From positions 62,001-126,000 of the forward strand of contig JAUYGZ010000008.1 of the NCBI GenBank assembly GCA_030690415.1: a stretch of 64,000 bases of DNA. The letters run 5' to 3'. The stretch comes from a bacterium. GTDB lineage: Bacteria; Patescibacteriota; Gracilibacteria; JAUYGZ01. The position numbers and the translations under genes were made by a program. Shown piece after piece: positions 43,533-63,556 of the stretch. Every line of letters starts with the position of its first letter. Position 1 is the first letter of the stretch. The notes under the pieces are model-generated. The model had not been told where the DNA came from, ran no database searches, and worked only from the letters and a program-made list of their open reading frames with translations.

Positions 43533-43891
43533 TGATCTCAAAAAAGATCTCTTATGAGAGAGGAGACGTTGTTCTCGTGGCATTTTCTCCCGTTGTGGGT
43601 TCGGAACAAGCCGATACCAGGCCAGCTATTGTCGTCAGCAATGAGCTTTTTCATCGGCTCCGGATTGTCACGGTGGCGGCTGTTACCTCGCGAAAAAGAG
43701 CCTTCCCGGGTCGCGTCAGTATCGATCCCGATTCCTCAAATGGTATCTCAAAGCCCTCAGATGTACTGGCCTTTCAGCTTCGAACGATCTCTACCAATCC
43801 GAAAAGGATTCTGAAAAAACTCGGGAAAATTGCCCCTGAGGATCTCAAACGATTGGATGTGGCCTTAAGGGTGGTTCTGAAGCTTGGGTGA
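43532..43891 (+). CDS. MazF/PemK-family toxin
   Basis: YERGDVVLVAFSPVVGSEQADTRPAIVVSNELF...VTVAAVTSRK...SDVLAFQLRTIS. Confidence 0.9.
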   Translation: MISKKISYERGDVVLVAFSPVVGSEQADTRPAIVVSNELFHRLRIVTVAAVTSRKRAFPGRVSIDPDSSNGISKPSDVLAFQLRTISTNPKRILKKLGKIAPEDLKRLDVALRVVLKLG

Positions 43892-43983
43892 AGTGAGAAC
43901 GGTAAAACAAGATTTGACCACTAGTAAAAAGGGCTGTTTTTTGGTATAATGAAGAGATTAAAACCAATATAAACACCAAAATA

Positions 43984-44388
43984 ATGCAGGACGAATACGC
44001 CCAAAATCCTTTCAAAGGTATCATCCCCACAGACGAGATCGACTTCGGCGAACTGATCGAGGTGATCAAGAGATCTGAGCTGTCTGAAGGCAAAAAGATT
44101 GCCTATTTGTATATGATCGCGGAAGAGACCTTCACCCTGGCCGATCTGGAAGAAATCGAGAATGAGATGATCATGGCGGGAAGAGAACTGGAGAAAGAAC
44201 AGGGAAAACAGATGAAGAAACTGCAAGAACTGAAGGCAAAGGAAGCAAAACTCCGCGAAAAGGTGGCCAAAGCACAAGTCAAATCCGCCCGGGAAATGGA
44301 GCGGAATTTCTCCAAACTGGAGGATGCCATGCTGGAGGAAGCCAACGCGAGCCAATTGGAAAAGGTTTATCAAAAGCTGACCAGGTAA
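43984..44388 (+). CDS. Hypothetical helical protein; module A small gene (left copy)
   Basis: SELSEGKKIAYLYMIAEETFTLADLEEIENEM resembles SPILDEHKALFLFLIAQGTFDLPHYQLFIDLL of 62745..63173; extended -10 TGGTATAAT at 43942-43950. Confidence 0.7.
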   Translation: MQDEYAQNPFKGIIPTDEIDFGELIEVIKRSELSEGKKIAYLYMIAEETFTLADLEEIENEMIMAGRELEKEQGKQMKKLQELKAKEAKLREKVAKAQVKSAREMERNFSKLEDAMLEEANASQLEKVYQKLTR

Positions 44389-44389
44389 C

Positions 44390-46639
44390 ATGACCTTTCG
44401 TTTTTCACAGAGCGAGCTCTTTTTCCCAAAACGATTGGCGTACGTCAGAAGTGCTGGGACAGACCCAGGTGCTGAGGCAGGGGAAGAAGCGGAGAGCCGA
44501 CGCCGAGCTCCGGAAGCTGAGGAAACGCGTCGGACTTCCGATGAAACCCGGTCGAAGATTAAGGATCTCTTTGATCAGGGAAAATTTGAAAAACTCAGGG
44601 GGAGGGAAGGCGGAGAGGAGGTCAGCATCGCGCCAAAAGAAATTTATGAAAACCTGAATAAGATCCTGGATGAAAAACAGTCTCCGGTAGAATGGGTCAT
44701 CAGCACCTATCGACACCTGTATCCTGCACTGGTAGGGCGGCCCATTGATGCCCGCGTACGACAGGATATTGTCGACGCAGAATGGCAACGTTTACGGGAT
44801 CTTCTGCCAGCAACCATTCTTGATCGCGTGAATCAAATCCTCGGCACTGAGGCTGCCCCTTCCTATACTGATGCCGTCACCGGCATCGTCGGAGGAAGTT
44901 TTTCTGACATCTCACCTGAAGGCCAACTCCTGGCGCAGAGGCTGCAGCTGGACACCACGGAGGTGATTTCCTGTCATGAGAATATGGAAGCTTTGAAGTT
45001 GATTGAAGCTGATATCAAGGCAATTGAAAATCGAACAGTTGATATCACGAAGCGTATTGAACAGCAAAAGGTGGATACGGGAAACATTACGGAATGGAAA
45101 AATAAGTGGGAGAAGAATAAGTGGGGATGGATCAAAAAGGGCTTCGGACTTGCCGCCAAAGGAACACTCATCGGGCTTGGAGTCACTGCTCTGGGAGGTG
45201 CGGTTGTTGGAGGTACAATGGCATTGGCGGGATATGGTTCTCTGTTTACCGGCGGTGTTGGAGCAGTTGGCAAGTATATTGGAGGAATGGGGATCTGGGG
45301 TGGAGTTGCCAAAATAGTATCCTCAACAGCCTTTGGGGTAACCGGTCTGGCTGCGATAAGCAACTGGGTATATGCCCCCGGGAAAGAGTGGTGGCTCAAA
45401 AGAAGGCATAAAAAAGAAACTGAGCGTCTGGAAGCAGAAAAAGAAGCTACTGAAGAACAGCTGGGTTTGAAACAACTCCGCGAACAAGAAAGCGAAACCA
45501 AAAATATTATTGACCGTAAAAAGGCCCGATCTAAACAGATCGTCACGGATATGACAGTGGAGAAAACTAAGGCTGAGAAACTGGAGAACACCTATCAGTC
45601 AGAGCTCAAGACCGCCGTCGATCCTCGACGAGGAGAACTTCAGACCCTGCTCGAGCAGCTGAGGCAATACATCACATACCTCCAGACTATCATCAGCGTA
45701 CACGAGTCCGTAAAAAATCCTGAAAAGTATCCCGCTGCCGTGAGGGCTGATGAGAATGCCATCGCTGCCCATATTCACGCCATGAATGCCGGAAAGAAAC
45801 GCACCGAAGCGATGCTGAAGCTCTTGGGTGAACAGCAAAAAGAATGGCAGGAGCAGATGGGGAAGGCGGGGGAGGCTGGGTATAAGGAAGGGGTTCACAG
45901 AGAGATGTCCAAGGGACTGCTTGATGAGCAGGATCTCCTCGACGCGGTCAGCAATTTTTTTGATCCGGCAGGAGCCCGAACAGCAATCGACTCTGGCACC
46001 CTGGGCCGCATCAAGCTCAAGGCTCCGGAGATTGAGAAGTTGATTCGATCACTGCAAAACCTTTCCACTCAATCTGTGCTTCAGACAGAGATACGGGAGA
46101 CGATTTATCCGGTGTTTAGGAAAGCGAGGAGGGAATATGTAAGGGCGCCGGCGAGGGAAAAAGTAGATGATTCTCTAGCTGAATTGTCTAAAGACGTTCA
46201 GCGTCAATTTAAGAAAGATCCAGTGCAGATCTTCAACTTTGCGGACAATTTAAGTCCTCCAATTTCGCTTCTTCGACCGCGTCGTCGTCAGCGTTCCAGC
46301 TTTAAGATCTGGGCTGACGCGATGACAAGAAAACAGCTTGAACAACTCAATGATGTGCTTCAAAAAATCAAAGCGTCATTTGCGACAGGGCCAGCAGTAC
46401 CAGCAGCACCTGCAGCACCAACGGCGCCAGTAACGCCAGCTGCTCCTGTTCCACCGGCACCAATTCCCACTCCTGTTCCTCCTCCTGCTGCTCCTGGTGC
46501 ACCAGCAGCACCAGCAGCACCGGCTGCTCCAGCTGCACCAGCGCCGGCGGCAGCACCTCCAGCAACACCAGCTGCAGCGGTGCCAGGAGCGACGGGGGCA
46601 GGGCCAGCAGCGGCACCGGCGGCAGCAGCAGCGCCATGA
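44390..46639 (+). CDS. Large hypothetical coiled-coil protein, two Gly-rich hydrophobic segments, Pro/Ala-rich tail; module A large gene (left copy)
   Basis: N-term FFPKRLAYVRSAGTDP resembles LLPKRCIWYTSKGKGPDE of 59787..62735; GTLIGLGVTALGGAVVGGTMALAG; tail (PAAPAAP)n. Confidence 0.75.
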   Translation: MTFRFSQSELFFPKRLAYVRSAGTDPGAEAGEEAESRRRAPEAEETRRTSDETRSKIKDLFDQGKFEKLRGREGGEEVSIAPKEIYENLNKILDEKQSPVEWVISTYRHLYPALVGRPIDARVRQDIVDAEWQRLRDLLPATILDRVNQILGTEAAPSYTDAVTGIVGGSFSDISPEGQLLAQRLQLDTTEVISCHENMEALKLIEADIKAIENRTVDITKRIEQQKVDTGNITEWKNKWEKNKWGWIKKGFGLAAKGTLIGLGVTALGGAVVGGTMALAGYGSLFTGGVGAVGKYIGGMGIWGGVAKIVSSTAFGVTGLAAISNWVYAPGKEWWLKRRHKKETERLEAEKEATEEQLGLKQLREQESETKNIIDRKKARSKQIVTDMTVEKTKAEKLENTYQSELKTAVDPRRGELQTLLEQLRQYITYLQTIISVHESVKNPEKYPAAVRADENAIAAHIHAMNAGKKRTEAMLKLLGEQQKEWQEQMGKAGEAGYKEGVHREMSKGLLDEQDLLDAVSNFFDPAGARTAIDSGTLGRIKLKAPEIEKLIRSLQNLSTQSVLQTEIRETIYPVFRKARREYVRAPAREKVDDSLAELSKDVQRQFKKDPVQIFNFADNLSPPISLLRPRRRQRSSFKIWADAMTRKQLEQLNDVLQKIKASFATGPAVPAAPAAPTAPVTPAAPVPPAPIPTPVPPPAAPGAPAAPAAPAAPAAPAPAAAPPATPAAAVPGATGAGPAAAPAAAAAP

Positions 46640-46777
46640 AGACGATGAACAGAAATGAACCGATTCGTTTATTCCCATCAACGAAAGGATGACCCTTGAT
46701 GATGAATTAGATGAGATAAGATAAGATGAGATGAGCAGGCGTGAACTTTGCCGATGTCGGAAGTCAATCTATCGCCA

Positions 46778-48427
46778 TCAAATCTTAGTTTCCTCCTCAT
46801 CGTCAAAACGCATATATCCGCCTGGTTCGTCATTCATTGTTACATTGCTTAAAGATCTGGAACTAGAATCAGTTACCTCTGATTCCCAAACCACCTCACC
46901 AGGAAATACCCCCACAAAATCCTCTCCATGATAAACATTATATGTTTTCCCCGGGACCAGCTTTTTTTCCCATTCCAATTCTCTATATTCAGGCCACGAT
47001 ATTGTTTCTCCGCTTGCATCAGGAGTTTCCATATTTGCATCAGGAAAAAACTGCTCCGGTTTTTCCCATTCTAAATATTTCGCGACATGTTGTGGGGGCG
47101 GCGGGGGGAGAGGTGGCAAAGAAAACGATTCCGAAAACGATGGTGCGCTTTCTCCACTTGACTCTGCTACAGACTGAGTCTCTGACGCATCCTCAAGAAG
47201 ATCAAAAAGATCAGTTGGAATTGATTGAGATTCGGCTCTCATATTCTCTTTATTACCAACCCGTCTCGTTTGCTCATCAGGCTTTTTTTTTTGAATCTGG
47301 GCGGCCCATTCGTCCCAATGAATCGCAGCCTGACATAACTGATTTTTCAGCGGTATGGCGAACATGCATTGGGAAGCTCCATAGCTTCCATCTTCTTTTC
47401 TCAACTTATAATCAATCATATTTTGTCTATTTTCGGCTTTACCCGTAATGACAATCGTCTCAATCTTTCCTCCTTTTCCCATCATCGGCAGCAGACAGTT
47501 CATTGGGAACGTGTACCCCTGGATGAGTTCAGTCAACACCACATCCTTTCCTTCGTTCGCTAGGGCGATTTTCCCTCGATCCAATTCTTCTGGAAGTCTT
47601 TCTGCAATCTTCAACGAGCTTACCTTTTTTTTAAATTCTCTTGCGGGTCCTTTTTCCTGAAAATTAAAGCTTCCTTCATCCATGTTTTCATGCCGTACTT
47701 GTGGTTTCTGATCAACTGATATCTCAGTTTTTTGAGTAGCTTTCGGCGCTTCTGGAGAAGACACCCCTCCTTTATCCGAAGCAATTTGGGGTGATTCTGA
47801 TCCTCGAGAGAGTGGTACTTGGAGAGCTTCGATTTTGGTACGGTGTTCTTCAGTCTGTATAATCAGGGATTTGTTGGTCTCTTCTTTTTGCAATGGCGGA
47901 ATATTACTTATTTTCAGGCTTTCTGCGATTCCTTTCTGAAAGCTGGATGCTTTGAGAAGACTGATCAAGTCGCTGAAATATGGAACCAGAATTTCTCCCT
48001 GTGCCTTCAAAACCTTTCCGTGAACCCATTCAGCCTCTTCGACCAGGAAGTACAAGAGGTCAAGGGTTGTCCGCTGCTGATCAGGTTTTAGATCCCGAGA
48101 AATCAGCATGAGAAGAAGGGCTAATGCTTCGAGACTCTTATCTTCCGATGGCAAACCCAGGGACTTGAGATGATCAACATAGGATAGATGATAGCTCGTC
48201 AGATCATGGTAAAGGGAATTGGCCGCCGTATAAAAGGGGATGAAGTCAGCCTGATTTCTTGTCATGAGGAGCTCAGGAAGCTGCCCTGCGATGTTGAGCG
48301 CCTGCTGAACTTTGTCGAGGTTGCGAAAAAGTCGCTCAGAATCGGTTTTCAGTACTTTGGAAAATACTATCATGAGCTGTAGCTCAGGACCTTTGAGAAA
48401 AATGCGTCCCTGCTCTTCTGGAATCAT
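46778..48427 (-). CDS. Large hypothetical protein sharing N-terminal helical domain with the two neighbours
   Basis: FYTAANSLYHDLTSYHLSYVDHLKSLGL vs LFTAASTLYKDLVSALQYCKNGLKALGL (48437..50869). Confidence 0.7.
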   Translation of the reverse strand: MIPEEQGRIFLKGPELQLMIVFSKVLKTDSERLFRNLDKVQQALNIAGQLPELLMTRNQADFIPFYTAANSLYHDLTSYHLSYVDHLKSLGLPSEDKSLEALALLLMLISRDLKPDQQRTTLDLLYFLVEEAEWVHGKVLKAQGEILVPYFSDLISLLKASSFQKGIAESLKISNIPPLQKEETNKSLIIQTEEHRTKIEALQVPLSRGSESPQIASDKGGVSSPEAPKATQKTEISVDQKPQVRHENMDEGSFNFQEKGPAREFKKKVSSLKIAERLPEELDRGKIALANEGKDVVLTELIQGYTFPMNCLLPMMGKGGKIETIVITGKAENRQNMIDYKLRKEDGSYGASQCMFAIPLKNQLCQAAIHWDEWAAQIQKKKPDEQTRRVGNKENMRAESQSIPTDLFDLLEDASETQSVAESSGESAPSFSESFSLPPLPPPPPQHVAKYLEWEKPEQFFPDANMETPDASGETISWPEYRELEWEKKLVPGKTYNVYHGEDFVGVFPGEVVWESEVTDSSSRSLSNVTMNDEPGGYMRFDDEEETKI

Positions 48428-48436
48428 ATGGGTGCG

Positions 48437-50869
48437 TTAATCAAAAATGTCCTCTCTTTTTTTTGCTTGTGCCGTCTCTTCCATTTCCGCAGCCTGGTCC
48501 TGAGTTGGGAGATCTTCGTCTTCGCGGTCTAAGGATTCTGGGGTTTTTCCTGCTGTGTCACTCCATTCCATATTCGGCACAAAAAAATCCCATCTGTCTC
48601 GTCCAATATCGTAGACCATCTCATATTCCGGTGTCTTTTCTTTGACTAAAGGAAAAGCCTGAACTCCATTTTTCTTCTTTGGCGTCAGGGTAAAGCGACA
48701 GGTAACATGGAGAGATACGTCGCTTGTTACCTTATAATCACCGAGGCATTTGCTTGCGGTGACATCGTGCTTTCTCAGATCCCACTGATCTGAAGCAAGG
48801 TCAGCTTCACGATAATCAGGCTCTTTAATACCAAACTCTCGCATTGCTAATCCAAGATAAGTGCTACATTCGATATTCGGTAAAAGAATATTGATCCGTT
48901 GCAGTTTAATCTGAGATCGCTGTTCATTTACCCGTTTTTTCAAAGCCCCTTCCAGTTTTATTGTTTTAAGAGGTATTGATGACTGTTCAGTGCGATATGG
49001 GTCATCGCTGTTCTGAGCTGACAAATGATCAACATCTATTGTTAAAACCCGATCTTCATCATCCTCAGGACTCCGTTTCCAGACGATAACGAGCTCGTCT
49101 TTAGTTCCCGCTTCAGCCCCGGACTGCTTTGATACGATGAGGTGGTATTTGGGTTCGGGCGCAATGACTTCGAGGGCGTTCAGGAGATGAGGGTCAGTGA
49201 TGATCCCCAGCTCCGTGACGACATCTTCCTCCCTGATGTTTTGCTGGATATAGTCAAAGGCTTCCAGATAATCCTGCCTATTTCGTAATAATGTGGGTTT
49301 TGAGAGACCGGTAAATTCTCCATTATTCCACCGGAGGAGTATCTCCCACCGGCCGGAACTGGTATTCTTCTCCAGATCATACGTTCGCTGGTGCCACATG
49401 AGTTGATCTTCTTCACCTGGAACCTGTACTTCAAGTGGCAAATATTTTGCATTCGAACCTCTGCGGATGGTCTTGTAATACACTTCTGCCGCTTCCGCAA
49501 CTTTGCCGTCGCTGATGAATAATCGATCGTCATTTGATTCTAAGGAGGCCTCTAGATTCTCTTTGAGGGTTTTTTGAGCGGTGTCGAAGTCCATCTCAGG
49601 TTTTTCGGATTCCTCGGTTGAGGGAGTTTGTGCGTCATTATCGAGGATGACGATAGGCTCGATCTGAGGTTCTTCGGGTTCGCTTCTCTCTTCCTGAGAT
49701 TGTTCTGTGGATTCAGTCTGAATTTTGCGGAGTGTTAGTTGCTGCTCCAGCTCAGCAATGCGTTTCTCAAGCACTTCATTCTTTTTCGTTTCTTTATCAA
49801 CAAGTTGCTGAGCGCTCTCTAGTGCATTCTTGGTCCTTTCATTTTGCTCCTTTATGTGAGTCTCTAACCTTTGCAATCCTGAGCGCGTATTCTCGATATT
49901 CTTTCTGAGATCATCGTTCTGACTTTCAATGAAACGAATGTGTTTCACAGCATCTTCCTTTCTACTTATTGCTTGTCTCAGAAGTTCCTCAAGCTCCAGC
50001 ACTTTCTTATTAGCGTTTTTCTCACTATTAATATTTCTATCGAGCGTAATACCAAGTTTTATATTGTCATCTTGCAGCTTACTGTATTCAGCTTTTAGCT
50101 CTTTGACGGTGTTTTTAAATTCCTGTTCCACTTCAGATCTTACTGTTTCAAGACTCAATTCTACCGCTCGGAGTTGTGCCGTGAGGGCCCCGATTTGCTG
50201 ATCTTTTTCATCTTCAGTCGGTTTTTTCTCCAGAGTTTTTTCAACTTCGCCTCTTGTTCCAGTTACAGCAGCAGATGCCGGTTCCGCTTTCTTCGCCAGC
50301 ACTTCACTTCGCGTCTTCTCCAGCTCAACTCCAAAACCACCTTTGAGCTCGTTAACCAGAGGTGTGAAAAGGGGAGTAGAGTCACGTTTTGCCCGTGTCA
50401 TGAGGTATTTCCAGGTCTGCTCAAGAAAGAGAAGCCGTGAATGGATCTCCTGTGGAGTTTCCTGGTTAGTTGAGCCACTGTCCGCCGAAGCCGTCAGAAG
50501 ATGAAAAGCAATCGTATCGAAATGAGGAGTATCAGAAGCGAGCCCAAGAGCCTTCAGCCCGTTTTTGCAGTACTGCAAAGCGCTCACAAGATCCTTGTAG
50601 AGCGTTGAAGCTGCCGTGAAGAGTTGCTCTCCTTTTTCCTTTATCCCATCCCTGTCTCCTTCTTTTTTGCATTGTTCAATCTCACTTTTCAACTCAGCAA
50701 TCCTCTTCAGTCCGGCAAAGAGCTTCATATTCGCCTGCCGTCCAACGATCATGCCAAAGAATTTTGCCTGTTTCTCCGGACTCTGACCCAATAGAGCCTT
50801 CCGAAAAGCTTCGAGAGCCTGGTCTTCAGAGGAATTGACCTGTGAATCGTTTTTTTGAAGTGCTGTCAT
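48437..50869 (-). CDS. Large hypothetical coiled-coil protein (810 aa)
   Basis: N-terminal helical domain shared with 46778..48427; central coiled coil; C-terminal globular region. Confidence 0.7.
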   Translation of the reverse strand: MTALQKNDSQVNSSEDQALEAFRKALLGQSPEKQAKFFGMIVGRQANMKLFAGLKRIAELKSEIEQCKKEGDRDGIKEKGEQLFTAASTLYKDLVSALQYCKNGLKALGLASDTPHFDTIAFHLLTASADSGSTNQETPQEIHSRLLFLEQTWKYLMTRAKRDSTPLFTPLVNELKGGFGVELEKTRSEVLAKKAEPASAAVTGTRGEVEKTLEKKPTEDEKDQQIGALTAQLRAVELSLETVRSEVEQEFKNTVKELKAEYSKLQDDNIKLGITLDRNINSEKNANKKVLELEELLRQAISRKEDAVKHIRFIESQNDDLRKNIENTRSGLQRLETHIKEQNERTKNALESAQQLVDKETKKNEVLEKRIAELEQQLTLRKIQTESTEQSQEERSEPEEPQIEPIVILDNDAQTPSTEESEKPEMDFDTAQKTLKENLEASLESNDDRLFISDGKVAEAAEVYYKTIRRGSNAKYLPLEVQVPGEEDQLMWHQRTYDLEKNTSSGRWEILLRWNNGEFTGLSKPTLLRNRQDYLEAFDYIQQNIREEDVVTELGIITDPHLLNALEVIAPEPKYHLIVSKQSGAEAGTKDELVIVWKRSPEDDEDRVLTIDVDHLSAQNSDDPYRTEQSSIPLKTIKLEGALKKRVNEQRSQIKLQRINILLPNIECSTYLGLAMREFGIKEPDYREADLASDQWDLRKHDVTASKCLGDYKVTSDVSLHVTCRFTLTPKKKNGVQAFPLVKEKTPEYEMVYDIGRDRWDFFVPNMEWSDTAGKTPESLDREDEDLPTQDQAAEMEETAQAKKREDIFD

Positions 50870-50891
50870 GATATGGGGCAGTCAGGGGATA

Positions 50892-53171
<2,280 letters not shown>

Positions 53172-53199
53172 AGTGTAAAAAGTAAAAGAGATGAAATGC

Positions 53200-55407
53200 T
53201 TATTTTTTATCGAATAATCTCAGGTGCGCGGAAATGGGGTCAAGGATCTCGACAGTATTATCCATGGTCCCAGGATTTGTCTGCAGCCAACGGAAAATTT
53301 CCTCTTCAAGAGCTGTCCGTTCCGGTTTTTCCATTGAAAGTCCTGGATGCCCTTGCCCTGAATAGAGAGCAATCTGCAGCTGTAAATCCTGAGGAAGGAG
53401 AGAAATCGCATTGACCAACTGAAAATCCGTTACCACAGCTGTCCACTTTTCCCATTCTTCCGTATGACGTTTCTGATGGCTCTCTTCCATGGTTCTTTTG
53501 GCATAATTGAAATCATAGGCATATCCCTCAGGTGCTTTCGGAGTAAGACTATCCCGTAGCGCCATGATCGCTTGATTCATCATGGCCTTCTCGACAAGCT
53601 TACCGATTCGTCCAGGATACAGGAGTGCCTGATCAACTATATCTCTCATGTCCTCAACAACTTCTCTTGGCTTCTTCACCAGAGTGTTGAGTTTCTCTAT
53701 CGTCCGCTTAAGTGCTTCAACGACCCGAACTGCCACTTCGATCTGATTGGGATCTGTGGAAAGGACTTTAATCGTTTCTTTTTTCAGCTCTGCTTCATAA
53801 ACAATCCTGACAACCGAATCCAAAACCGTATTGAGATGTTGCATTCCTTCCTGAACATGCCCCCAGGTGGCCGTGACTGCATTTGCCAATTCATTCAGCT
53901 CGCTGACGGCGAGATATGCCGCGGACAGATCGCCGCTACTTGAAGCGGTGTGGCCGTCATCATACTTTTTCGTAAAGGTTACCAGCTGTTCCCGCGTTTG
54001 CTGTAATGAGGTATTTAATTGAACAAGTGTTGTATCGATCGTATGTGACGCGATGCGGAGCGAATCGGAAACGTATCGATCGAGCTGTGTAAGATTTTCT
54101 GAAACCAGTTGACATGCCGTTTGGGGAGCTGATGTTTTCGCGGCAGTGAGCAGGACATTGTAGGTAGTGTTTGCTGATTGAGCACTAATATTCACCTCTG
54201 TAGCAATGCCGTTGATCTGAGTGATAAACTCCTTCGCTTTTTCCACTTGCTCCTGAACCTTCGCAGACATACTTGCGTCAGCAGCTTTAGCAGCTTTATC
54301 CTTCGCCTTGTTTATATTCTCTTCTGACGGGGTAACCGTGTCCTTCTTCATGGCCCCCAGAGTGCTGACCCCCTCATTCACGATGTTCATCTGTGCTTCA
54401 GCTTTTTGAACGAGTTCTCTCAAAGCCTGAGAAGCCATGGCGGTCGCGTCTCTCAGGGTAATCGCTTCATTCAGCCCGTCCAGAAGCTCCTGAAGCACAC
54501 CCTCTGCCGTCTCTACTCTTTCCGGCCACCCTGTGGCAGTGTTCACCGCTGTCGTTAAATTTCCAACAATGTGTTGAGCCTCTGTGAGCGCGTTTTGCCC
54601 ATCTTCCCGTGAAGGGACGATTTTATTGACCATCTCAGTTATTCTGGCACGAAGATCAGTCGCCTGCTTTCGTAGTATTGTAATCTTCATGTTGTCCACA
54701 ACAACCTGATCGGCATTTTTTATAGCAGGATTGAGGATGCTGTCACTGAGATCGATGGCCTGTCCCATCAATACGAGCGCGCTGTCGGCGCCGACCTGGT
54801 CCGGTCTGGCGGCTGCGAGCAGATCTCTTTTCGCATTTTTTACCGCCTCCAGCGCTTTCCGCGCTTCCGCAGGCACAGTCTCAACCGCATTCATGGCCGT
54901 GAAGGCCGCGTTTAGGTGTTGCTCAGCATCGCGAATAAGCTGTAAGAGGGGAGCGATATCCTTTCTTCCTTCGGTATTGATGGTGCCCTCAACCTGATCC
55001 AATTTTGTCTCTGTCTCGTCTAACCATGCGGCACAGGAAACAGCGGTCGTTTCAAGTCGTCCGGCGTATACATGGAGAGAGTCGGCACCAGCTTTGGCCA
55101 AATCCAGCGGGCCGGACCCCTGAGTGGGCGCAAGGCCGTCCGTGGCAGTACCTTGGCCAGTGAGAAATCCACGGAGAGCGTATCCAGCCCCAAGTTTAAT
55201 GTATTTCCTGAGAGCTGATGGAGAGCCGGTAAGGTCAAGAGACTGCTGCCTAAGCTGAGGAGCTACTTGTTGATCATCTGTATCAGGTCTCCTTTGGCTT
55301 AGTTCAGTAGCACTTATGCCTCTTCTCGAGCCTCCCTTTAAGTCTCTTAACTTTCTCAGCGCATCCGATTCTCTGCCTTCTGGACGTCTTGGTGATGGAT
55401 TATTCAT
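53200..55407 (-). CDS. Large all-helical hypothetical protein (735 aa)
   Basis: Long ORF with heptad-like helical content throughout; no family recognised. Confidence 0.7.
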   Translation of the reverse strand: MNNPSPRRPEGRESDALRKLRDLKGGSRRGISATELSQRRPDTDDQQVAPQLRQQSLDLTGSPSALRKYIKLGAGYALRGFLTGQGTATDGLAPTQGSGPLDLAKAGADSLHVYAGRLETTAVSCAAWLDETETKLDQVEGTINTEGRKDIAPLLQLIRDAEQHLNAAFTAMNAVETVPAEARKALEAVKNAKRDLLAAARPDQVGADSALVLMGQAIDLSDSILNPAIKNADQVVVDNMKITILRKQATDLRARITEMVNKIVPSREDGQNALTEAQHIVGNLTTAVNTATGWPERVETAEGVLQELLDGLNEAITLRDATAMASQALRELVQKAEAQMNIVNEGVSTLGAMKKDTVTPSEENINKAKDKAAKAADASMSAKVQEQVEKAKEFITQINGIATEVNISAQSANTTYNVLLTAAKTSAPQTACQLVSENLTQLDRYVSDSLRIASHTIDTTLVQLNTSLQQTREQLVTFTKKYDDGHTASSSGDLSAAYLAVSELNELANAVTATWGHVQEGMQHLNTVLDSVVRIVYEAELKKETIKVLSTDPNQIEVAVRVVEALKRTIEKLNTLVKKPREVVEDMRDIVDQALLYPGRIGKLVEKAMMNQAIMALRDSLTPKAPEGYAYDFNYAKRTMEESHQKRHTEEWEKWTAVVTDFQLVNAISLLPQDLQLQIALYSGQGHPGLSMEKPERTALEEEIFRWLQTNPGTMDNTVEILDPISAHLRLFDKK

Positions 55408-55459
55408 ACGTATAGTATAAGAAAAATGAAAAAAAATGATTATAAATAAAAATGACTAA

Positions 55460-57913
55460 TTAATTGGGAAGTTTGGCCTCAATTATATTTAATAAATCTT
55501 GAGCAAGATCCTTTTCACCTCCAACCCCTACCTTAGCTCTCTCTTGAGCAGTCTTTGTAGTAGTACTCAAAAGCGCTTCAGCAACTTCTTTAGGGGTACC
55601 CAATGATACTTCAGGCAACGCTATGTTGAATGTATCCATCCAATGTCTGACCTGATCATCTGGACTCTTTTTTCCTTCCACGTCCTTTATTATCTTTGCA
55701 ATCGCTTTCGTATCAGCACCTTTGTCTGAGTTTTCCAACAGGAGGAGCTTGTCACTGATTTTCTGGTCCAAAGCATCGGATACGGTCCGGACCCGTGAAC
55801 GGATCATGCCGCTGACAGCCTGCAAATGTCTGCCAAGAGATACCTGCCTGCTAAGCGTCTCGGCGACGAGCTGGACTTTTCTTTCCCAGACGGGGATCTG
55901 TCGCTCGTATTCCTGAGCTCTCCTTTTCTGGGCTGCTATCCTGCTCTTGTAGACAGCTTTTTTAATCTCCCAGGTGGATTCGATACCAGCTCTCTGCTCA
56001 TCAATCATGGCTTTAAATTTAGCCTGGTATTGCTTTCTATAGGCTTCCCTCGCCGCGTTGATGCCCATGGTCGCGTCACCATCAAGGGCTTCACCATTTT
56101 CCAGTTTTCGTTGTTCTTCTTTCGTAAGAAGAATTTCTTCGCCTGCTTCATCTCTAAAATACCCATTATTGAGCTTATCGATCACGAAGAGCAATCTTCC
56201 GGATTCCAACTCAGCCTCCGAATACGCGGCAGCATCATCATTATTGTTTTGTGTTAATTCCTCTAGTCTCGCTTCTTGCGCCTTGATTCTCGCTTCATAT
56301 TCCAGCACAAACTCACCTTCGACATCATCCAATCTTTCCTGAACCCAAACTTTCATGGAATCCTCACCGCTCGCGGCGTCGAGTTTTTGGAGCTGTTGAG
56401 CTTTGAGAGAAAGGGCGGCTCTTTCTTCTTCCCTGTATTGTTTTTTCATCTCCTCCAGCACTGCTTTCGCGTGCACAGCCGTCTTTGCCGCAGTCCAGTA
56501 ATCCAAGAGGGTCTTCGTGAAGATCGGCTGCAATTCAGTTCCGATGATCTGACGATCGATCGTGGCGACCCATTCATCAATGCCTTTTTCCGTCATGAGG
56601 CTGGCCATCTTCGCAAGCGCCTGAAATTGTTCTTTTTTCTCGTCACGTTGAATGGCGGCGGCTCTTCGCTTGTCATCGCTGGCGGACCGCACCATGGCTC
56701 TGGCCACAATTTTTCTGGGGGTCTTTTCAAAGCGCTCCGCGAGAGGCTGGTAAAGCTCCGAAAGGTCATCCCTCACTCCTTTAATAATCTCATGGTCTTG
56801 CTGTGGCGTGTCAGGAGTATCCGTTAATACTGCTGGTATGAGTTTGGTGAAAGCCTGAATCTCATTTTCGTCCGAAGGCAACGCGTCCAGAAATACCTTG
56901 ATAAAGGCAACTCTGGCGGCAGCCATATCATGGTCTTTCATCACCTCCAGCATGGTACCGACCTTCTCAAGTACCGCGTTGAAAACGCCATTCGCCAGCT
57001 CTCTGGCGGTATGCTCCTCATCATCCATCAGCTGGATCGTTTCGTCATCGTGTCGGTGCAAATTCGTTTCGTTTTCTCCAATGATACGTCCATTTTCTTC
57101 GATCAGCCCTTTCGCGAGCTCCTTCTCAGCCTCATAAATCCGGTCATCGATGCCCTGTCCATTGAGGTGCCTTCGGTAATCGTCAACAGCTCCAATAAGC
57201 TTTTTGTAGGCTTCAGCCGTGTCACGGAGGCTTTGAAGGCGTTTGGGCATGCTTTTGAACGGTTTTTCGTACCAAGAAATATCGACTGGAAAGCCTTTCG
57301 CGTTCAATCTCTCAGATTGTTCCCTGTCTGGTAAATCTGATATTTCTGAAAGCAGAACAGTAAGCTCTAGTGACAATTGAATCGTCTCGTCCAAAAGAAG
57401 GTCGTTCGGATCGGTTTCCTGTTCGCACCCAATCGAGTTCAAAAGGGAAAAAAACTGCAATGAATCAGGGAAAAGACCCTTAACCCCGGCATCAAGACGA
57501 AATCGTACATTATCGTACCATGTCGCGTTCTTCCGTATCGACAGGATAAGATCCTCCTTTGAGGCATCAATCAGCTCTTGATCCTGCTCTTTTTGTTGCT
57601 TTAATTTTTTTACCCTTTCACCGGTATCAGTGAGTTGAGGCGAAATGTTTCCTTCACCCTTTCTTTGTTCATACAACCGTCCAACAAGAGGGGAGAGGGG
57701 AGCATCGGACTTCAGCGCTCGCTGAAGCTCGTCGATTTCCCGTCTCAGTTCGATGTTATTATCAGATCCGGTATGCCCGGGAAGCTCTTGTGCTCCATAG
57801 CTGGCAACCAGATCAATGACAGAGTGGAGGTCTTCAAAGTATGCTGTTTTTTGAGCTTCCAGCTTCGCGGGGATGATTTCCTGTCTGTCCAGTAGCTTTA
57901 ATTTCATAGACAT
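55460..57913 (-). CDS. Large coiled-coil hypothetical protein (ORF opens at 58108; MSMKLKLLDRQ start at 57913 preferred)
   Basis: Long ORF, charged helical content; first 65 residues of the ORF look like untranslated upstream sequence. Confidence 0.7.
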   Translation of the reverse strand: MSMKLKLLDRQEIIPAKLEAQKTAYFEDLHSVIDLVASYGAQELPGHTGSDNNIELRREIDELQRALKSDAPLSPLVGRLYEQRKGEGNISPQLTDTGERVKKLKQQKEQDQELIDASKEDLILSIRKNATWYDNVRFRLDAGVKGLFPDSLQFFSLLNSIGCEQETDPNDLLLDETIQLSLELTVLLSEISDLPDREQSERLNAKGFPVDISWYEKPFKSMPKRLQSLRDTAEAYKKLIGAVDDYRRHLNGQGIDDRIYEAEKELAKGLIEENGRIIGENETNLHRHDDETIQLMDDEEHTARELANGVFNAVLEKVGTMLEVMKDHDMAAARVAFIKVFLDALPSDENEIQAFTKLIPAVLTDTPDTPQQDHEIIKGVRDDLSELYQPLAERFEKTPRKIVARAMVRSASDDKRRAAAIQRDEKKEQFQALAKMASLMTEKGIDEWVATIDRQIIGTELQPIFTKTLLDYWTAAKTAVHAKAVLEEMKKQYREEERAALSLKAQQLQKLDAASGEDSMKVWVQERLDDVEGEFVLEYEARIKAQEARLEELTQNNNDDAAAYSEAELESGRLLFVIDKLNNGYFRDEAGEEILLTKEEQRKLENGEALDGDATMGINAAREAYRKQYQAKFKAMIDEQRAGIESTWEIKKAVYKSRIAAQKRRAQEYERQIPVWERKVQLVAETLSRQVSLGRHLQAVSGMIRSRVRTVSDALDQKISDKLLLLENSDKGADTKAIAKIIKDVEGKKSPDDQVRHWMDTFNIALPEVSLGTPKEVAEALLSTTTKTAQERAKVGVGGEKDLAQDLLNIIEAKLPN

Positions 57914-58131
57914 TACATAAAAAATTTGAGATTGTATTTTATCTCCTGTTCTGCGATTTGTCAAGCGTGTTTTGACTTTTCTTTTGTTTGTGGTTTCGTG
58001 GGTGGAAAAGGAAAAAAAAGCCGGTAGTGAACCGGTTCCACAAGCTGACACTTGCGAACAATACAAAATCATGATACCGTAAACTCTCCCGTGTGCTCGA
58101 ACGGGCATCTCTTTACAAATAACTCAAGCTT

Positions 58132-58419
58132 ATGCAAGATTCACTCACCATGTATTCGCATCCCATGCCAGAATCAGCCCCCTCATCATTTGACTGGAGA
58201 GAGCACGTTACGTTTCCTGTCAAAAACAACTGGGGAGAACCTCTACCGGATATCATCGTTCAGGATTATCTGGAGAAATGTCGGTCTGAAGAGGAATTTT
58301 CCTGCGCGTGGGAAGAACTGATGACCCACCGAAGTGATCCTGAAAGTCCTTCCGATGTGCATGATTTAGTAGAACTCCTTGAATATCTTCGAGATGCTAT
58401 CAGGAAGAACTCGGAGTAA
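58132..58419 (+). CDS. Small hypothetical protein (FDW motif), divergent homolog of 5180..5437
   Basis: Alignment listed at 5180..5437; same convergent arrangement with downstream paralog. Confidence 0.6.
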   Translation: MQDSLTMYSHPMPESAPSSFDWREHVTFPVKNNWGEPLPDIIVQDYLEKCRSEEEFSCAWEELMTHRSDPESPSDVHDLVELLEYLRDAIRKNSE

Positions 58420-58433
58420 GAGCCTGAAGAGGG

Positions 58434-59648
58434 TTACCGCGATTCTCTTTTCAGCTTATTCACCAGTTCATCGAGAATGTCCGCGAAGGCTGTCAGTATT
58501 CCATGATCACGAAGTGTTTTTTGAAATATATTGGTAAAGAACTGGTCATGATCCTGATGGGGATCATATTCCCTGAGCCCAGTGAAGAGACCGCTCAAGA
58601 GATCCTCTTTAAATGAGTGCTCAGTGAGATGTCGAAACAGGGCTCTTTTGAAGTCAGTTGGTCCTGTATATCGTTCAGGGTATTGCCGGAAATATTCTTC
58701 AGGAAAAATTTCTTTGGCAGATTCTTCTGTGAGTTTCAGACGCTTTGTCCTAGGCCTATCATCCCCTGATTCATAAGGTCTCGTTTTAACATCAATTGCC
58801 ATATATTTATATATGTGCTTTTTCCCCTTTGTTTTCTTGATTTCCACCATCAGATCGACTAAGCCATAATAATCCATCACAGCATCGACGGGGATCACAC
58901 GCCACCTGGTGCCTTTCAGATATTCCGCCAGGACGAGGGTAATAATCCGCTCCATGAACTTTCCCCAGGTCAGTTTCTGATAGGCTTTTTCACCATCAGT
59001 GTCCAGATTTCTTCTGTCTTCGAGGACTGCCCTTCCGAGCAGCTCCTCTTTCAGCTTTTGGAAAGCATCATGAACAGGCTTCAGTTCCTCGAATGATTTG
59101 AGAGTCTCCTGGTCCTTCTCCCAGAGTCTTTTCAACACGGACTCAGGCGATTCAGAGGGATCCACCTCGAATGGAAAAAGGTTGATAGCATCAACAAGAC
59201 CGCTGTGGCCCAGTCGGGCAAATTGACGTATCGCGTTTTCCATGGAGAGTCCTTCAAGAATTTCTCTTCGGAAAAAGGTTCTGGACCGGTAATCAAATTG
59301 TTCTTTGCTCGCGGATATCGCGATCATCTTTTCTTTGAATTCCGGTTCACCAATGTGTTGCAGATCGATCAGTGGCTCTGGCTGGCGGGACTTCTTTCTT
59401 TTATCCTCTTCTTCACGAGCTTTCCGAATAAGTTCCACCCATTTCTCATTTCGAAGATCCAGCAGTCGCTGAACCTGTTTTGAAACCCCTGATGTAAGAA
59501 TCTCAGATAGCTTTTCTCTGGATTCTTTAATCATCGATTCGAGTCTTTTCTGGTTTTCTGGAGCGATATCTTCCTGATGATTCGATCCTACTGGTCCTTG
59601 CTCCGCACCACTTTCAAATGGTGTTTCATTGGGAACTGGAAGCGTCAT
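58434..59648 (-). CDS. Hypothetical protein with putative PD-(D/E)XK-like domain; paralog of 5456..7120 (ORF opens at 59699)
   Basis: LWEKDQETLK...LGRAVLEDRRNL...LTWGKFMERIITLVLAE...LVDLMVE...MAIDVKTRP. Confidence 0.8.
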   Translation of the reverse strand: MTLPVPNETPFESGAEQGPVGSNHQEDIAPENQKRLESMIKESREKLSEILTSGVSKQVQRLLDLRNEKWVELIRKAREEEDKRKKSRQPEPLIDLQHIGEPEFKEKMIAISASKEQFDYRSRTFFRREILEGLSMENAIRQFARLGHSGLVDAINLFPFEVDPSESPESVLKRLWEKDQETLKSFEELKPVHDAFQKLKEELLGRAVLEDRRNLDTDGEKAYQKLTWGKFMERIITLVLAEYLKGTRWRVIPVDAVMDYYGLVDLMVEIKKTKGKKHIYKYMAIDVKTRPYESGDDRPRTKRLKLTEESAKEIFPEEYFRQYPERYTGPTDFKRALFRHLTEHSFKEDLLSGLFTGLREYDPHQDHDQFFTNIFQKTLRDHGILTAFADILDELVNKLKRESR

Positions 59649-59786
59649 AGATGGAAGAAAATATCCTTTCAGTATATCAAAAAATGGCTCATTAATCAAT
59701 GAAAGTGCTTATCCCGAGGATCCCTACGATCGGATGGAAGAGAGGAATCAACGCTCAACTTTTCATCAAGATTAAGATATTAGGTC

Positions 59787-62735
59787 TCAACTCGCTCCCT
59801 GCAGAAGTATTTCCTTATAATCCCCATTCTCTTCTACATACACAAACCGCTCTTTGTTTCCTGTATCACTTTTGTTCGGAGGGTTGGGTGCCACGATACT
59901 CCATTTATTATCAACTTCATCAACTTTCATCAGAGCATTTCCATTATCAGGTTTCTTCAGCAATTCGATGAGCTTCCTAAAATTGTACCGAAATGCCTCG
60001 AGATACTTGGCGTTGGCATTATCGGTAAGAAGGGGTGGGTTCTCATTTTCCCCCTTCATGATCGCTTGTGGATTTCCATTGGCTTTCACAATGAGGAGAT
60101 CGTCGAAGAGACAGGGGGTATTTGGATCATTGTCCTTGAGGCACTTTAAGGGTCCCTTGCCACCTTCTGAAGAATCGATAGAGATGATCTCTATTTGAGA
60201 GAAGTCAAGTGGATTGTTGAAGTCAGTAGTATTTGTATTAGCTAGTTCTTTATCCAGCTCCGACAGCTGAGTATTCACATCCGAATACATCTTCTCCTTC
60301 GTCTCCAGTCCAAATTTCCCATCTCCTCGTACTTTTCCTTTCTCATCCAGCCGTGTCACCACGCATTTCTCTTTGATGGCTTCGAGCAGGGATTTCCATT
60401 TGCCGAGTTCTTTTACATCTTTGTGTTTCTCGATATATTTTTTGAAGCCACCTTTGTTTCTAATTAAGGTTGGATAGACAGTTGGATTTTCGCCCCCTCT
60501 ATTTTGGCTTATAAATTCTTTAATCGCCTCAAAATTCTTATCCAACACATCCTCAATGCCCTTGAGGTGGGGGAGAGTTTTGGCTGCTGTCGTGAGGGCT
60601 TCATAAGCTGTGATGACTTCCTGTCGCTTTGTATTCAACGCTTCATTTCTTTCACCCTCTTCTTCATTTTCCTCATCTCCTCCTTCTTCTTCCCTTCCTT
60701 CCTCCTTCGCGGCAGCGCCCTCCCACATCTCAAGCATCTTGCCCGCCATATCGTCATACCCCGCCGGCCCCTTCGGGTACCGTGACTCGAGGGTCAGGCG
60801 TGGCAGGCTGATGAGCATTTCGTAGAGGTCTTTGTGGTAGCGCTTCATCTCCCTCAGCAGTGGGAACTCCCTCCCCAGCTCGAAATCCGACATTTTGCCC
60901 CAGAGCTTTTCGTCTGCGGTGCCGGCGTTTTGAATTTCCTCCAAATAGTCATGAACTCCCGTTCGATCGTCTGCACTGAGTTCCTTATACCATTTATCAA
61001 CCTGTTTCTGGTTCACTTTGCCCAGGACCTCTTGGGCTTTTTTCGTCCGTTCATCCTGCTCTTTGGCGAATTTTTTGATGGTATCGAGAAGCTCGGGGTG
61101 AAAGCCCTTGTAGAGAGATTCGAGGACTTCTTTCGTCACGGGTGTTTTTTGGAACTGGTCATTGAGTTTAAACAATGATTCGACCTTTTCCATGGCTTTG
61201 AGGGCGTCCTCGGATCGGCCAAGTGTGATACGGGCAGCGCTAAGGATCCTTTGTTCTTGTTCAAACTCATTTGTGATTGCAGTCTTTTCAGGCTCTTCTG
61301 CTTTTGCCAGCTTCACCTGTAGGCTCATGAGCCGCATGCTCGACTGGTCCACTGCGGATTTGTTATCCTTGATCTGGGCTCTCAGGTCTTTTATGGCCGC
61401 GTCGAAATCTTTTTTATCTTTGGTGATGCTGGACTGGTGCTCACGGAGCTCTTTCTCGACGAAAGTTTTTTCTTCGGTTTCTTTGGTTTTTTGTGCCAAG
61501 AGGGCTTCCTCTTTTCTTTCGATCTTGAGAGTAACACCCCCTGCCACTGTTCCCGAAACCAGTTGCCCCGGCTTGGCTTCTATCACTTCAGTTATCGGTT
61601 TTTTATCGATGAATCCTCCGGGAGCAATTTTTATTGTATTCGGCGCTTCACCCGGCCCGCGTTTTGGGATTCGAAAGTCTTTGAGTTCGTCTCCAGCTGA
61701 GATTGTGACTATTCCCTTCTCGAGCAGATCCTGCTGGAACTTGAGGCTTTTTCTCAGCACGGATGGGATTTTCATATTGTTTCTCCATCGGTCGAGAAAA
61801 TTCCCGACCCTGGTCCATCTCAAGATACCTCCAGTGATGGCAGCCCCTAATGCGGCCCCTCCAACAATTGGCCAAAAAACCGGAAATGTGACACCCGCTA
61901 GTGCCAGGGATCCTACTGTTAAAGAACTACCGAGTACACCGACACCGCCCGACAGGAGCCCTGTATTAAACTTTTGCCAAATCCATGCTCCAGCCTTATC
62001 ATACCATTCGGCCTTATTAATCGCCTCATCCCTCATTTTCTTCACCTCCTTCGCGTAGTCCTGAACCCTGTTCAGCCGTCCGTTCAGGGCGTTGATCCTC
62101 CGCTCGAGGTTTTTCTTTCTATTGGTAAGCTCATTCACCCGCTCGAGGTCTTCTTTCTTCATGCCCAATGCGCCTACGGTATCCGCGAGGGATCGGTAAA
62201 AGGTTTGTTCTTCTTCAGAGACTTCTTGTAATTCATATGTAGGCTCTTCATTTTCATCACTTATCCAAGTGCCCACTGCTAAACCCTCAAGCTTTTCTTT
62301 CGCAAGCTCCGCGACATCATTCCCCTCTGGTGTCCCAACCCTTGCTGATAATTCGTCAATGGCGTCAAGGGCCTTCTTAGACGCACGCTTGCGGAATTTA
62401 TCCATGAGGTACTCGTGGATTATCCATTTTAGGTCTTCTCCGATTTTCCTTGATGACAATATGATGCTAATAGCATTTTCTTTCCCCATCTCATCCAGCA
62501 CGTCCTCATACTTTTCGGCAAAAGCTTCGGGATCCGTGGTCGTGAAGACTCCGCTCAGCTGGTCAAAGATAGCCGCCTGGCTGTCGACGGGGTGGACTTT
62601 TCCGGGCTCTTCAAGACCCTTTTCTTCACTGAGGGTTTTTTCATCAGGGCCTTTCCCTTTGCTGGTATACCAAATACATCGTTTGGGGAGCAAAAAATGA
62701 TCGTTTTGATGCTGAAATGTGCTCTGAAGCTCCAT
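59787..62735 (-). CDS. Giant hypothetical coiled-coil protein (982 aa) with two hydrophobic Gly-rich segments; module A large gene (right copy)
   Basis: LLSGGVGVLGSSLTVGSLALAGV and IVGGAALGAAITGGIL; N-terminal similarity to 44390..46639. Confidence 0.75.
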   Translation of the reverse strand: MELQSTFQHQNDHFLLPKRCIWYTSKGKGPDEKTLSEEKGLEEPGKVHPVDSQAAIFDQLSGVFTTTDPEAFAEKYEDVLDEMGKENAISIILSSRKIGEDLKWIIHEYLMDKFRKRASKKALDAIDELSARVGTPEGNDVAELAKEKLEGLAVGTWISDENEEPTYELQEVSEEEQTFYRSLADTVGALGMKKEDLERVNELTNRKKNLERRINALNGRLNRVQDYAKEVKKMRDEAINKAEWYDKAGAWIWQKFNTGLLSGGVGVLGSSLTVGSLALAGVTFPVFWPIVGGAALGAAITGGILRWTRVGNFLDRWRNNMKIPSVLRKSLKFQQDLLEKGIVTISAGDELKDFRIPKRGPGEAPNTIKIAPGGFIDKKPITEVIEAKPGQLVSGTVAGGVTLKIERKEEALLAQKTKETEEKTFVEKELREHQSSITKDKKDFDAAIKDLRAQIKDNKSAVDQSSMRLMSLQVKLAKAEEPEKTAITNEFEQEQRILSAARITLGRSEDALKAMEKVESLFKLNDQFQKTPVTKEVLESLYKGFHPELLDTIKKFAKEQDERTKKAQEVLGKVNQKQVDKWYKELSADDRTGVHDYLEEIQNAGTADEKLWGKMSDFELGREFPLLREMKRYHKDLYEMLISLPRLTLESRYPKGPAGYDDMAGKMLEMWEGAAAKEEGREEEGGDEENEEEGERNEALNTKRQEVITAYEALTTAAKTLPHLKGIEDVLDKNFEAIKEFISQNRGGENPTVYPTLIRNKGGFKKYIEKHKDVKELGKWKSLLEAIKEKCVVTRLDEKGKVRGDGKFGLETKEKMYSDVNTQLSELDKELANTNTTDFNNPLDFSQIEIISIDSSEGGKGPLKCLKDNDPNTPCLFDDLLIVKANGNPQAIMKGENENPPLLTDNANAKYLEAFRYNFRKLIELLKKPDNGNALMKVDEVDNKWSIVAPNPPNKSDTGNKERFVYVEENGDYKEILLQGAS

Positions 62736-62744
62736 ACTCCGGTG

Positions 62745-63173
62745 TTATTTGTTTTTAATTTTTTGTGCCATTTCGCGGGCCTGCTTAGCTTCCCCTTTTT
62801 TCTGAACTTCGTGGAGCTGCTCGACCGTACGAATCTCGATGTGCTCGCATGCCGCCTGAATTTCTTTGCAGGCTCCTATGGAGACAGCCGTCAATTCAAC
62901 ATTAGTCTGATCCAGTTCTTTATTCAGGCCATCTATTTCCTCTTCCAGAGACCTTGCCTCCTCCAAACGGGACTGATAGTGGCGTTCCAGAAGGTCGATG
63001 AAGAGCTGGTAATGAGGCAGATCAAAGGTTCCCTGCGCGATCAGGAAGAGAAAGAGCGCTTTGTGTTCATCAAGAATGGGACTCACCGCGATATCCGCGG
63101 CGATTTTCCCGATGAATTCGGGGGTGAGTTCGGGGGGAGTTGCATCCGTCTTTTGGGTTTTGGTTTTTGACAT
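62745..63173 (-). CDS. Hypothetical helical protein; module A small gene (right copy)
   Basis: See 43984..44388; 9 nt between it and the large gene. Confidence 0.7.
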   Translation of the reverse strand: MSKTKTQKTDATPPELTPEFIGKIAADIAVSPILDEHKALFLFLIAQGTFDLPHYQLFIDLLERHYQSRLEEARSLEEEIDGLNKELDQTNVELTAVSIGACKEIQAACEHIEIRTVEQLHEVQKKGEAKQAREMAQKIKNK

Positions 63174-63196: not shown

Positions 63197-63244
63197 ATTA
63201 TAGCGGAAAAAGGGGTTTGATGCAATGGCCAGGATGGGTATAAT
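63197..63244. promoter_or_regulatory. Divergent promoter pair with overlapping -35 hexamers
   Basis: + strand TTGATG (63217-63222) -16- TATAAT (63239-63244); - strand TTGCAT (63225-63220) -17- TATAAT (63202-63197). Confidence 0.6.
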
Positions 63245-63273: not shown

Positions 63274-63546
63274 ATGAAAAAAACAGTCCGGCAAAACATT
63301 TCTCATTACACCGTCGTCTTCACATCCGATGAAGAGGGGTTTTACCATGTGAGCGTTCCTGTCCTTCCTGGCTGTGTGACGTTTGGAAGCAGTTTTCAGG
63401 AAGCTCAGGAGAAGGCTCAGGAAGTGATTGAGCTCTGGCTGGAAGAACTGGCGGGTGAGAAACAACCTTTACCTCAAGAGACGAAACGGCCCTGGATAGG
63501 AGATATTGCCGTCAAAGTTCCGAAACTAAAAAGTTATTCCGTGTAA
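63274..63546 (+). CDS. hicB: HicB-family antitoxin
   Basis: YTVVFTSDEEGFYHVSVPVLPGCVTFGSSFQEAQEKAQEVIELWLEEL. Confidence 0.93.
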   Translation: MKKTVRQNISHYTVVFTSDEEGFYHVSVPVLPGCVTFGSSFQEAQEKAQEVIELWLEELAGEKQPLPQETKRPWIGDIAVKVPKLKSYSV

Positions 63547-63556
63547 GCCCTTCCGA

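What the first reader, a model, noticed from the sequence alone, without database searches (positions are those of the whole stretch)
43984..63173. Mirror-image two-gene modules framing a roughly 19-kb island of giant unknown proteins
A small helical gene followed immediately by a large membrane coiled-coil gene occurs at the left edge on + (43984..44388, 44390..46639) and at the right edge on - (62745..63173, 59787..62735), both pointing inward. Small proteins share S.L.E.KK...L.(M/L)IA..TF.L; large ones share an N-terminal (F/L)(F/L)PKR....S.G..P motif and paired Gly-rich hydrophobic segments flanked by long coiled coils. Everything between is unannotatable by eye. This looks like an expanded, rearranged multi-gene system, possibly a membrane-associated or cytoskeletal/surface apparatus. 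Function is unknown.
Basis: partly seen in the sequence, partly recalled or inferred. Interest (0 to 1): 0.75.

Follow-up and report, generated by a model that had tools for sequence, protein, structure and literature searches.

The report
Class-wide paired helical genes, locally expanded
The two mirror-image gene pairs are real relatives, and they belong to an undescribed two-gene family found in several families of one class of tiny uncultured (Patescibacteria-type) bacteria; at this locus the family has grown into fast-changing giant proteins of unknown function.

Summary
Coordinates and left-right kinship hold, but the picture needs redrawing. Small proteins: left and right families match by profile (hhalign 96%, E 3e-9; shuffled controls no better than 0.09). 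Large proteins: weak (E 3e-5 pairwise; coiled-coil/hydrophobic block plus an N-terminal 'PKR..[YW]' peptide). The right pair heads one eight-gene, one-strand run (63173 to 46778); the left pair is separate and convergent. The locus holds the same chromosomal position in two other genera of the family, with almost unrecognisable content: resident and fast-diverging, not a recent insertion. Profiles of the small protein recover the pair (large helical protein touching small helical protein) across the class, and a second pair in this genome. In most families the large partner carries an N-terminal [KE]xR-hydrophobic-hydrophobic-aromatic peptide and an acidic/Pro linker, although the bodies are otherwise dissimilar. 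Pfam, NCBIfam, PHROGs, PADLOC and PDB give nothing for the core pair; D has an excisionase-type HTH, G a PD-(D/E)XK-like signature. Function is inferred: most likely a peptide-docked helical scaffold with the small protein as adaptor; export by a T4SS-like system is the main rival. Both AF2 models failed.

The parts
43945..43950 (+). TATAAT box upstream of the left small gene
   Evidence: read from sequence; similar boxes upstream of the right small gene and of the G002 and G003 counterparts; not tested functionally
43984..44388 (+). A1, left small helical protein (134 aa), founding member of the small family
   Evidence: (54% identity over 55 aa to the G002 counterpart)
44390..46639 (+). A2, left large helical protein (749 aa): N-terminal PKR peptide, coiled coils, Gly-rich hydrophobic block, Ala/Pro tail; starts 1 nt after A1
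44417..44446 (+). N-terminal peptide LFFPKRLAYV of A2
45161..45379 (+). Gly-rich hydrophobic block of A2 (residues 258-330)
46778..48427 (-). B (549 aa), last gene of the right-hand run; N-terminal domain related to C
48437..50869 (-). C (810 aa), N-terminal domain related to B, coiled coil
50892..53171 (-). D (759 aa), long Glu/Asp-rich stretch and a helix-turn-helix
51138..51272 (-). excisionase-type HTH in D (residues 634-678)
   Evidence: Pfam HTH_17 1e-5 (26.2 bits, just under the 27.0 cut-off), PHROG 66 2e-5, TIGR01764 2e-4, PADLOC mad1 7e-5
53200..55407 (-). E (735 aa), helical, no family
55460..58108 (-). F (882 aa as ORF; likely starts near 57913), helical, no family
   Evidence: start judged from sequence
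58132..58419 (+). small opposite-strand ORF (95 aa) between F and G; status open
   Evidence: coding-like codon score, no family
58434..59699 (-). G (421 aa), putative PD-(D/E)XK-like domain; paralog at 5456-7120 (-)
58782..58970 (-). putative nuclease core of G: TWGKFxExI, VDL, IDxK (residues 244-306)
   Evidence: conserved between two paralogs; structure model too poor to confirm
59787..62735 (-). A2', right large helical protein (982 aa)
61821..61964 (-). Gly-rich hydrophobic block of A2' (residues 258-305)
62667..62696 (-). N-terminal peptide FLLPKRCIWY of A2'
62745..63173 (-). A1', right small helical protein (142 aa), head of the eight-gene run
63197..63202 (-). TATAAT box upstream of A1'
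   Evidence: read from sequence

Best explanation
Shown: the two pairs are copies of an undescribed two-gene module (a small helical-hairpin/coiled-coil protein and a touching, much larger helical protein) found in several families of this class. In the window's family one such locus lies in a fixed chromosomal slot and has grown into a fast-diverging giant-protein cluster; in this genome the slot holds two copies, a lone left pair and, inverted, a right pair heading an eight-gene run. Inferred: the large protein is tethered by its N-terminal basic-hydrophobic-aromatic peptide and flexible acidic linker to one common partner (a membrane patch or a shared receptor); its long helical body acts as scaffold or spacer, in A2/A2' also inserted in the membrane by the Gly-rich block; the small protein co-folds with it as adaptor or chaperone; the genes B-G are clients or effectors of that scaffold, some acting on DNA (HTH in D, nuclease-like core in G). 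The architecture part I hold at about 0.85, the mechanism at about 0.4; the stated confidence is for the mechanism.
For: Left-right small-protein homology. Same slot filled in G002 and G003, with the 1-nt small/large junction conserved in G002. Small-family profile finds pairs in other families and a second pair in this genome that is conserved in G002 and G003. N-terminal peptide in 12 of 16 large partners vs 15 of 754 other ORFs (pattern was loosened during the work); it is the only part shared by the large-protein profiles. No N-terminal hydrophobic signal in any island protein. HTH, AAA-type ATPase and nuclease-like signature among slot genes point to an intracellular setting. Host-like codon usage.
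Against: No structure, localisation or interaction data; both AF2 models failed. The strict peptide pattern is missing in the G003 slot copy and, in genomes fetched later, in G234, G190 and G285, so it cannot be essential to the pair everywhere. Middle genes B-G show no detectable kinship with the G002 slot genes. Large-protein homology across the class is not demonstrated.
Confidence: 0.4

Rival explanations
1. Exported effectors: the N-terminal peptide is an uncleaved export signal, the small protein a dedicated chaperone and the large protein a cargo (in A2/A2' with a membrane-inserting block) delivered by T4SS-like machinery of these bacteria.
For: In family f23 (G125, G073) the pair lies directly between a T4SS-coupling-protein/HerA-like ATPase gene and a gene with peptidoglycan-binding domains (plus a weak 3D domain in G125). 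In the window's family the same type of ATPase gene lies about 6 kb from the slot in all three genera. Small touching partner gene, disordered linker and rapid divergence are usual for effectors (general knowledge).
Against: In the other families whose surroundings were read no such ATPase was noticed beside the pair. Export signals of T4SS cargo are usually C-terminal (general knowledge). DNA-binding, AAA and nuclease-like domains in slot genes fit an intracellular role at least as well.
Confidence: 0.25
2. A defence or conflict system: DNA-sensing helical proteins with a nuclease, diversifying under pressure from phages or rivals.
For: Rapid divergence in a fixed slot, nuclease-like signature, toxin-antitoxin genes at both edges, weak EAD9 match (4.5e-5, below cut-off) in a peptide-bearing protein of the second locus of G002.
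Against: No convincing PADLOC match (the hit of E to LmuB is coiled coil). The core pair has no nuclease or ATPase. G was found in no other genome of the class sampled.
Confidence: 0.12
3. A mobile genetic element or prophage remnant with tape-measure-like proteins.
For: Long coiled coils with hydrophobic segments; excisionase-type HTH in D; TA modules at the edges.
Against: No relative of A2' in phages or plasmids; no PHROG match except the HTH; no integrase or tail gene in the island; same slot in three genera; host-like codon usage; no flanking or inverted repeats of note.
Confidence: 0.05

Closest known systems
Giant membrane proteins of Vampirococcus lugosii (CPR; PMC8080830)
   Same: Very large proteins in a reduced Patescibacteria-type genome, thought by the authors to be membrane-located and to serve host attachment
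   Different: The paper's text describes giant cell-surface proteins; the island proteins have no N-terminal hydrophobic signal and only A2/A2' have predicted hydrophobic segments; no pairing with a small helical gene is described in the passages read
T7SS LXG/WXG100 effector-partner pairs
   Same: Works-like resemblance only: a small helical gene beside a large helical protein with a Gly-rich hydrophobic block (recalled, not tested as homology)
   Different: No W residue in A1 or A1', no LXG or WXG profile match in Pfam
Alpha pore-forming toxins of the HBL/ClyA type
   Same: Long helices around a hydrophobic segment; weak Pfam hit of A2' to Bacillus_HBL (E 0.0098)
   Different: 16.2 bits against a cut-off of 29.1, no signal peptide
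PD-(D/E)XK nucleases (for G only)
   Same: Helix-E / D / D-x-K signature conserved between two paralogs of 29% identity; helix then strands in the (poor) model
   Different: No profile or PDB match

Membership tests
Class-wide small/large helical pair (defined here) | small protein matches the family profile | tested here: met
   A1 and A1' match by construction; independent test: profile of A1' plus G003 small vs profile of the other families, 96%, E 2.2e-9; A1-type vs the same profile weak, E 0.0035
Class-wide small/large helical pair (defined here) | larger helical gene touching on the same strand | tested here: met
   1-nt gap left, 9-nt gap right; gaps of about 1-52 nt elsewhere
Class-wide small/large helical pair (defined here) | N-terminal [KE]xR-h-h-aromatic peptide on the large protein | tested here: met
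   A2 PKRLAY, A2' PKRCIW; not universal in the family
Class-wide small/large helical pair (defined here) | large protein homologous along its body | tested here: inconclusive
   profile comparison aligns only the peptide, E 0.3
T7SS LXG/WXG100 pair | WXG motif / LXG domain | tested here: not met
   no W in A1 or A1'; no Pfam match
HBL/ClyA alpha pore-forming toxin | profile match above cut-off | tested here: not met
   16.2 of 29.1 bits
HBL/ClyA alpha pore-forming toxin | secretion signal | tested here: not met
   no N-terminal hydrophobic segment
Phage tail tape measure / prophage | phage profile or phage record match, tail genes nearby | tested here: not met
   no tail gene among island ORFs
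Recently acquired mobile island | absent from the same position in relatives, foreign composition | tested here: not met
   same slot filled in G002 and G003; host-like codon usage
SMC/MukB-like or Lamassu system | P-loop ATPase with long coiled coils | tested here: not met
   no ATPase family match in window genes; the G002 slot has an AAA-type P-loop protein
PD-(D/E)XK nuclease (G) | fold | tested here: inconclusive
   pLDDT 38
PD-(D/E)XK nuclease (G) | nuclease activity | not testable with these tools
   needs assay

The most novel reading that the evidence does not exclude
A class-specific N-terminal sorting peptide loads many otherwise unrelated large helical proteins, each with its own small adaptor, onto one dedicated membrane or export machine that has not been described; the window shows its most expanded, fastest-evolving cargo locus.
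Probability: 0.2. Interest if true: 0.85.

Novelty: categorically new. Interest (0 to 1): 0.6.

Why it matters
The finding turns a set of unannotatable giants into members of a family that can be tracked: the small protein and the N-terminal peptide are handles for finding partners across a class of uncultured bacteria. If the peptide is a sorting or docking signal, it would point to a cellular machine that is in none of the libraries searched. 'Categorically new' here describes the absence of any known family or system match, not a demonstrated new function.

Tried and rejected
Direct BLAST/phmmer of the small proteins left vs right (weak or nothing; relatives were needed as bridges). The search for related loci with A2' in named genomes (nothing); BLAST of A2, A2' and G and a profile of G in order or class (only own genome): similarity search fails and synteny is needed. 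AF2 of A2 and of G (pLDDT 38-39): no fold search was made because it would be meaningless. Single-sequence hhalign of B-G against the G002 slot genes: no match, so orthology of the middle genes is unproven. Class-wide large profile vs A2 profile: only the N-terminal peptide aligns. Phage/plasmid origin; duplication by DNA inverted repeat. LapB hit of the large profile in PDB (E 1e-5) judged generic helical composition. Small-family hits beside GreA and HolA-like genes (L128, L132, L135, L136) judged a different helical family with a similar hairpin. Literature searches found no description. A viral-contig scan with the small profile could not be run (no conserved stretch).

Full report
OBSERVATION. 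Left and right small proteins do not match by BLAST, but relatives link them, and the two two-sequence profiles match at 96% probability, E 3.4e-9; a rerun in my own script gave E 9e-8 against a best of 0.09 from 60 block-shuffled controls. The large proteins match at E 3e-5, 21% identity, z 5.4 against locally shuffled sequence, but only 29% probability by profiles; the match covers the coiled-coil plus Gly-rich hydrophobic block, and the N-terminal PKR peptide is shared in addition. I treat the small-protein homology as established and the large-protein homology as probable.

ANATOMY. The right pair is the head of a single co-directional run: A1' (62745-63173), A2', G, F, E, D, C, B (ending at 46778), with short gaps except between G and F, where the opposite-strand ORF 58132-58419 also has coding-like codon statistics. 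The left pair (43984-46639) is separate and convergent. TATAAT boxes stand upstream of both small genes and of their G002 and G003 counterparts (inspection only). B and C share an N-terminal domain (E 2e-6). D carries an excisionase-type HTH (just under the Pfam cut-off). G and the ORF at 5456-7120 are paralogs (E 2e-12) with a conserved TWGKFxExI / VDL..E.K / IDxK pattern that reads like a PD-(D/E)XK core, which I could not confirm structurally.

THE SLOT IS CONSERVED, THE CONTENT IS NOT. Its small protein is 54% identical to A1 over 55 aa, and the 1-nt small/large junction is the same. In G003 the contig ends inside the slot after a small (157 aa) and a large (at least 513 aa) gene. BLAST searches of genomes with A2, A2' or G found no match in either relative. 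The slot is therefore old and its genes diverge very fast. A tree of small proteins groups the four slot copies (89/90) apart from the copies at a second locus (93/91), which suggests that A1 and A1' arose by duplication within this locus lineage (branches are long and most forks weak).

A WIDER FAMILY. Profiles of the small protein find strong matches in other families of the class, for example G160, G195, G206, G245, G074, G068, G125, G346, G234, G190 and G014, and a second pair in the window's own genome on contig C13 that is conserved next to a PurL-like gene in G002 and G003. In every strong case examined a larger helical gene touches the small one on the same strand. Elsewhere the order is large then small; in the FtsQ slot it is small then large. 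The small family has a helical hairpin 'L....K..Y...I..G..T', a coiled coil and a C-terminal 'Q...IR..LKKK' tail. Weak matches appear in other classes of the phylum (G460, G446, G631), beside a larger gene but without the peptide.

THE N-TERMINAL PEPTIDE. Large partners in the window's family and in f5, f6 and f23 begin, within about 5-45 residues, with a polar or basic residue, R, two hydrophobic residues and an aromatic: PKRLAY, PKRCIW, PKRMLY, NKRLVF, ERRVVY, EQRLLF, QKRVVW, NRRFVW, ERRLLF, ENRLVY, PVRLVY, followed in most by an acidic or Ala/Pro-rich stretch. Scored with one pattern it occurs in 12 of 16 module proteins and 15 of 754 other ORFs; three of those 15 are other proteins of the second locus. 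The pattern was loosened while members accumulated, so the p-value (4e-16) is descriptive. In genomes fetched afterwards the strict pattern held in G068, appeared as a variant in G014 (EKNFLF) and was absent in G234, G190 and G285. Islands of large proteins beside a trigger-factor-like gene in other families (L039, L041, L042, L045) begin with related peptides such as KENRFLW and KEHRFVF. Aligning class-wide large proteins with the window's large proteins recovers only this peptide.

KNOWN KINDS. Pfam, NCBIfam, PHROGs, PADLOC and PDB give no convincing family for the core pair. Phage and plasmid collections hold no relative of A2'. Literature searches found only the note that another CPR bacterium, Vampirococcus, has giant proteins inferred to be in its membrane (PMC8080830).

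MECHANISM. What is shown is architecture, conservation of place and pairing, and the recurrent peptide. What is inferred is that the peptide docks large helical bodies to a common partner and that the small protein is adaptor or chaperone. Absence of N-terminal hydrophobic signals and the HTH, AAA and nuclease-like features of slot genes favour an intracellular, membrane-associated scaffold (about 0.4). Linkage in family f23 to a T4SS-coupling-protein-like ATPase and a peptidoglycan-binding protein keeps export as a serious rival (about 0.25). A conflict system (0.12) and a mobile element (0.05) are less likely; the remainder is something not thought of.

LIMITS. Genes were called mechanically as longest ORFs, so some starts are uncertain (F, the G002 875-aa ORF, the G074 472-aa ORF). 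About half of the 1.45-Mb genome was read. Only three genera of the family were available, one broken at the slot. Both structure models are unusable.

Noticed in passing
window 5456-7120 (-): 554-aa paralog of G, alone among genes on the other strand, with the same putative PD-(D/E)XK pattern; no match elsewhere in the class sample.
   Followed up: partly
window 43182-43891 (+) and 63274-63763 (+): PemK/MazF-like and HicBA toxin-antitoxin pairs sit at the two edges of the island; a HEPN gene follows at L003 229-714. G003 has only 37 nt between the FtsQ-like gene and the small gene, so the left TA pair looks inserted.
   Followed up: partly
L063/L069 (contig C13 of the genome, 6867-27240): Second cluster: proteins of 145, 488, 385, 1340 and 2121 aa with small helical genes; four begin with the KR-type peptide.
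   Followed up: partly
L037, L039, L041, L042, L045, beside a trigger-factor-like gene: Other families of the class carry further islands of large unannotated proteins with related N-terminal peptides (KENRFLW, KEHRFVF, KERFFVF).
   Followed up: partly
L154 2535-6086 (+), G346: 1183-aa protein with a peptide-like start (ASKFVFAG) and a thioredoxin domain (E 1.5e-16), two genes before the pair.
   Followed up: no
L161, G014: The small gene is open only if TGA is read as a residue (code 25), as expected for some members of this class.
   Followed up: no
L003 12946-15072 (+): 708-aa protein with a weak RIO/kinase-like stretch (E 0.016) after folate genes; a 303-aa ORF lies at that place in G002.
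   Followed up: no
window 46391-46639 (+): Ala/Pro-rich tail of A2 built from short imperfect DNA repeats; not seen in A2' or the G002 counterpart.
   Followed up: no
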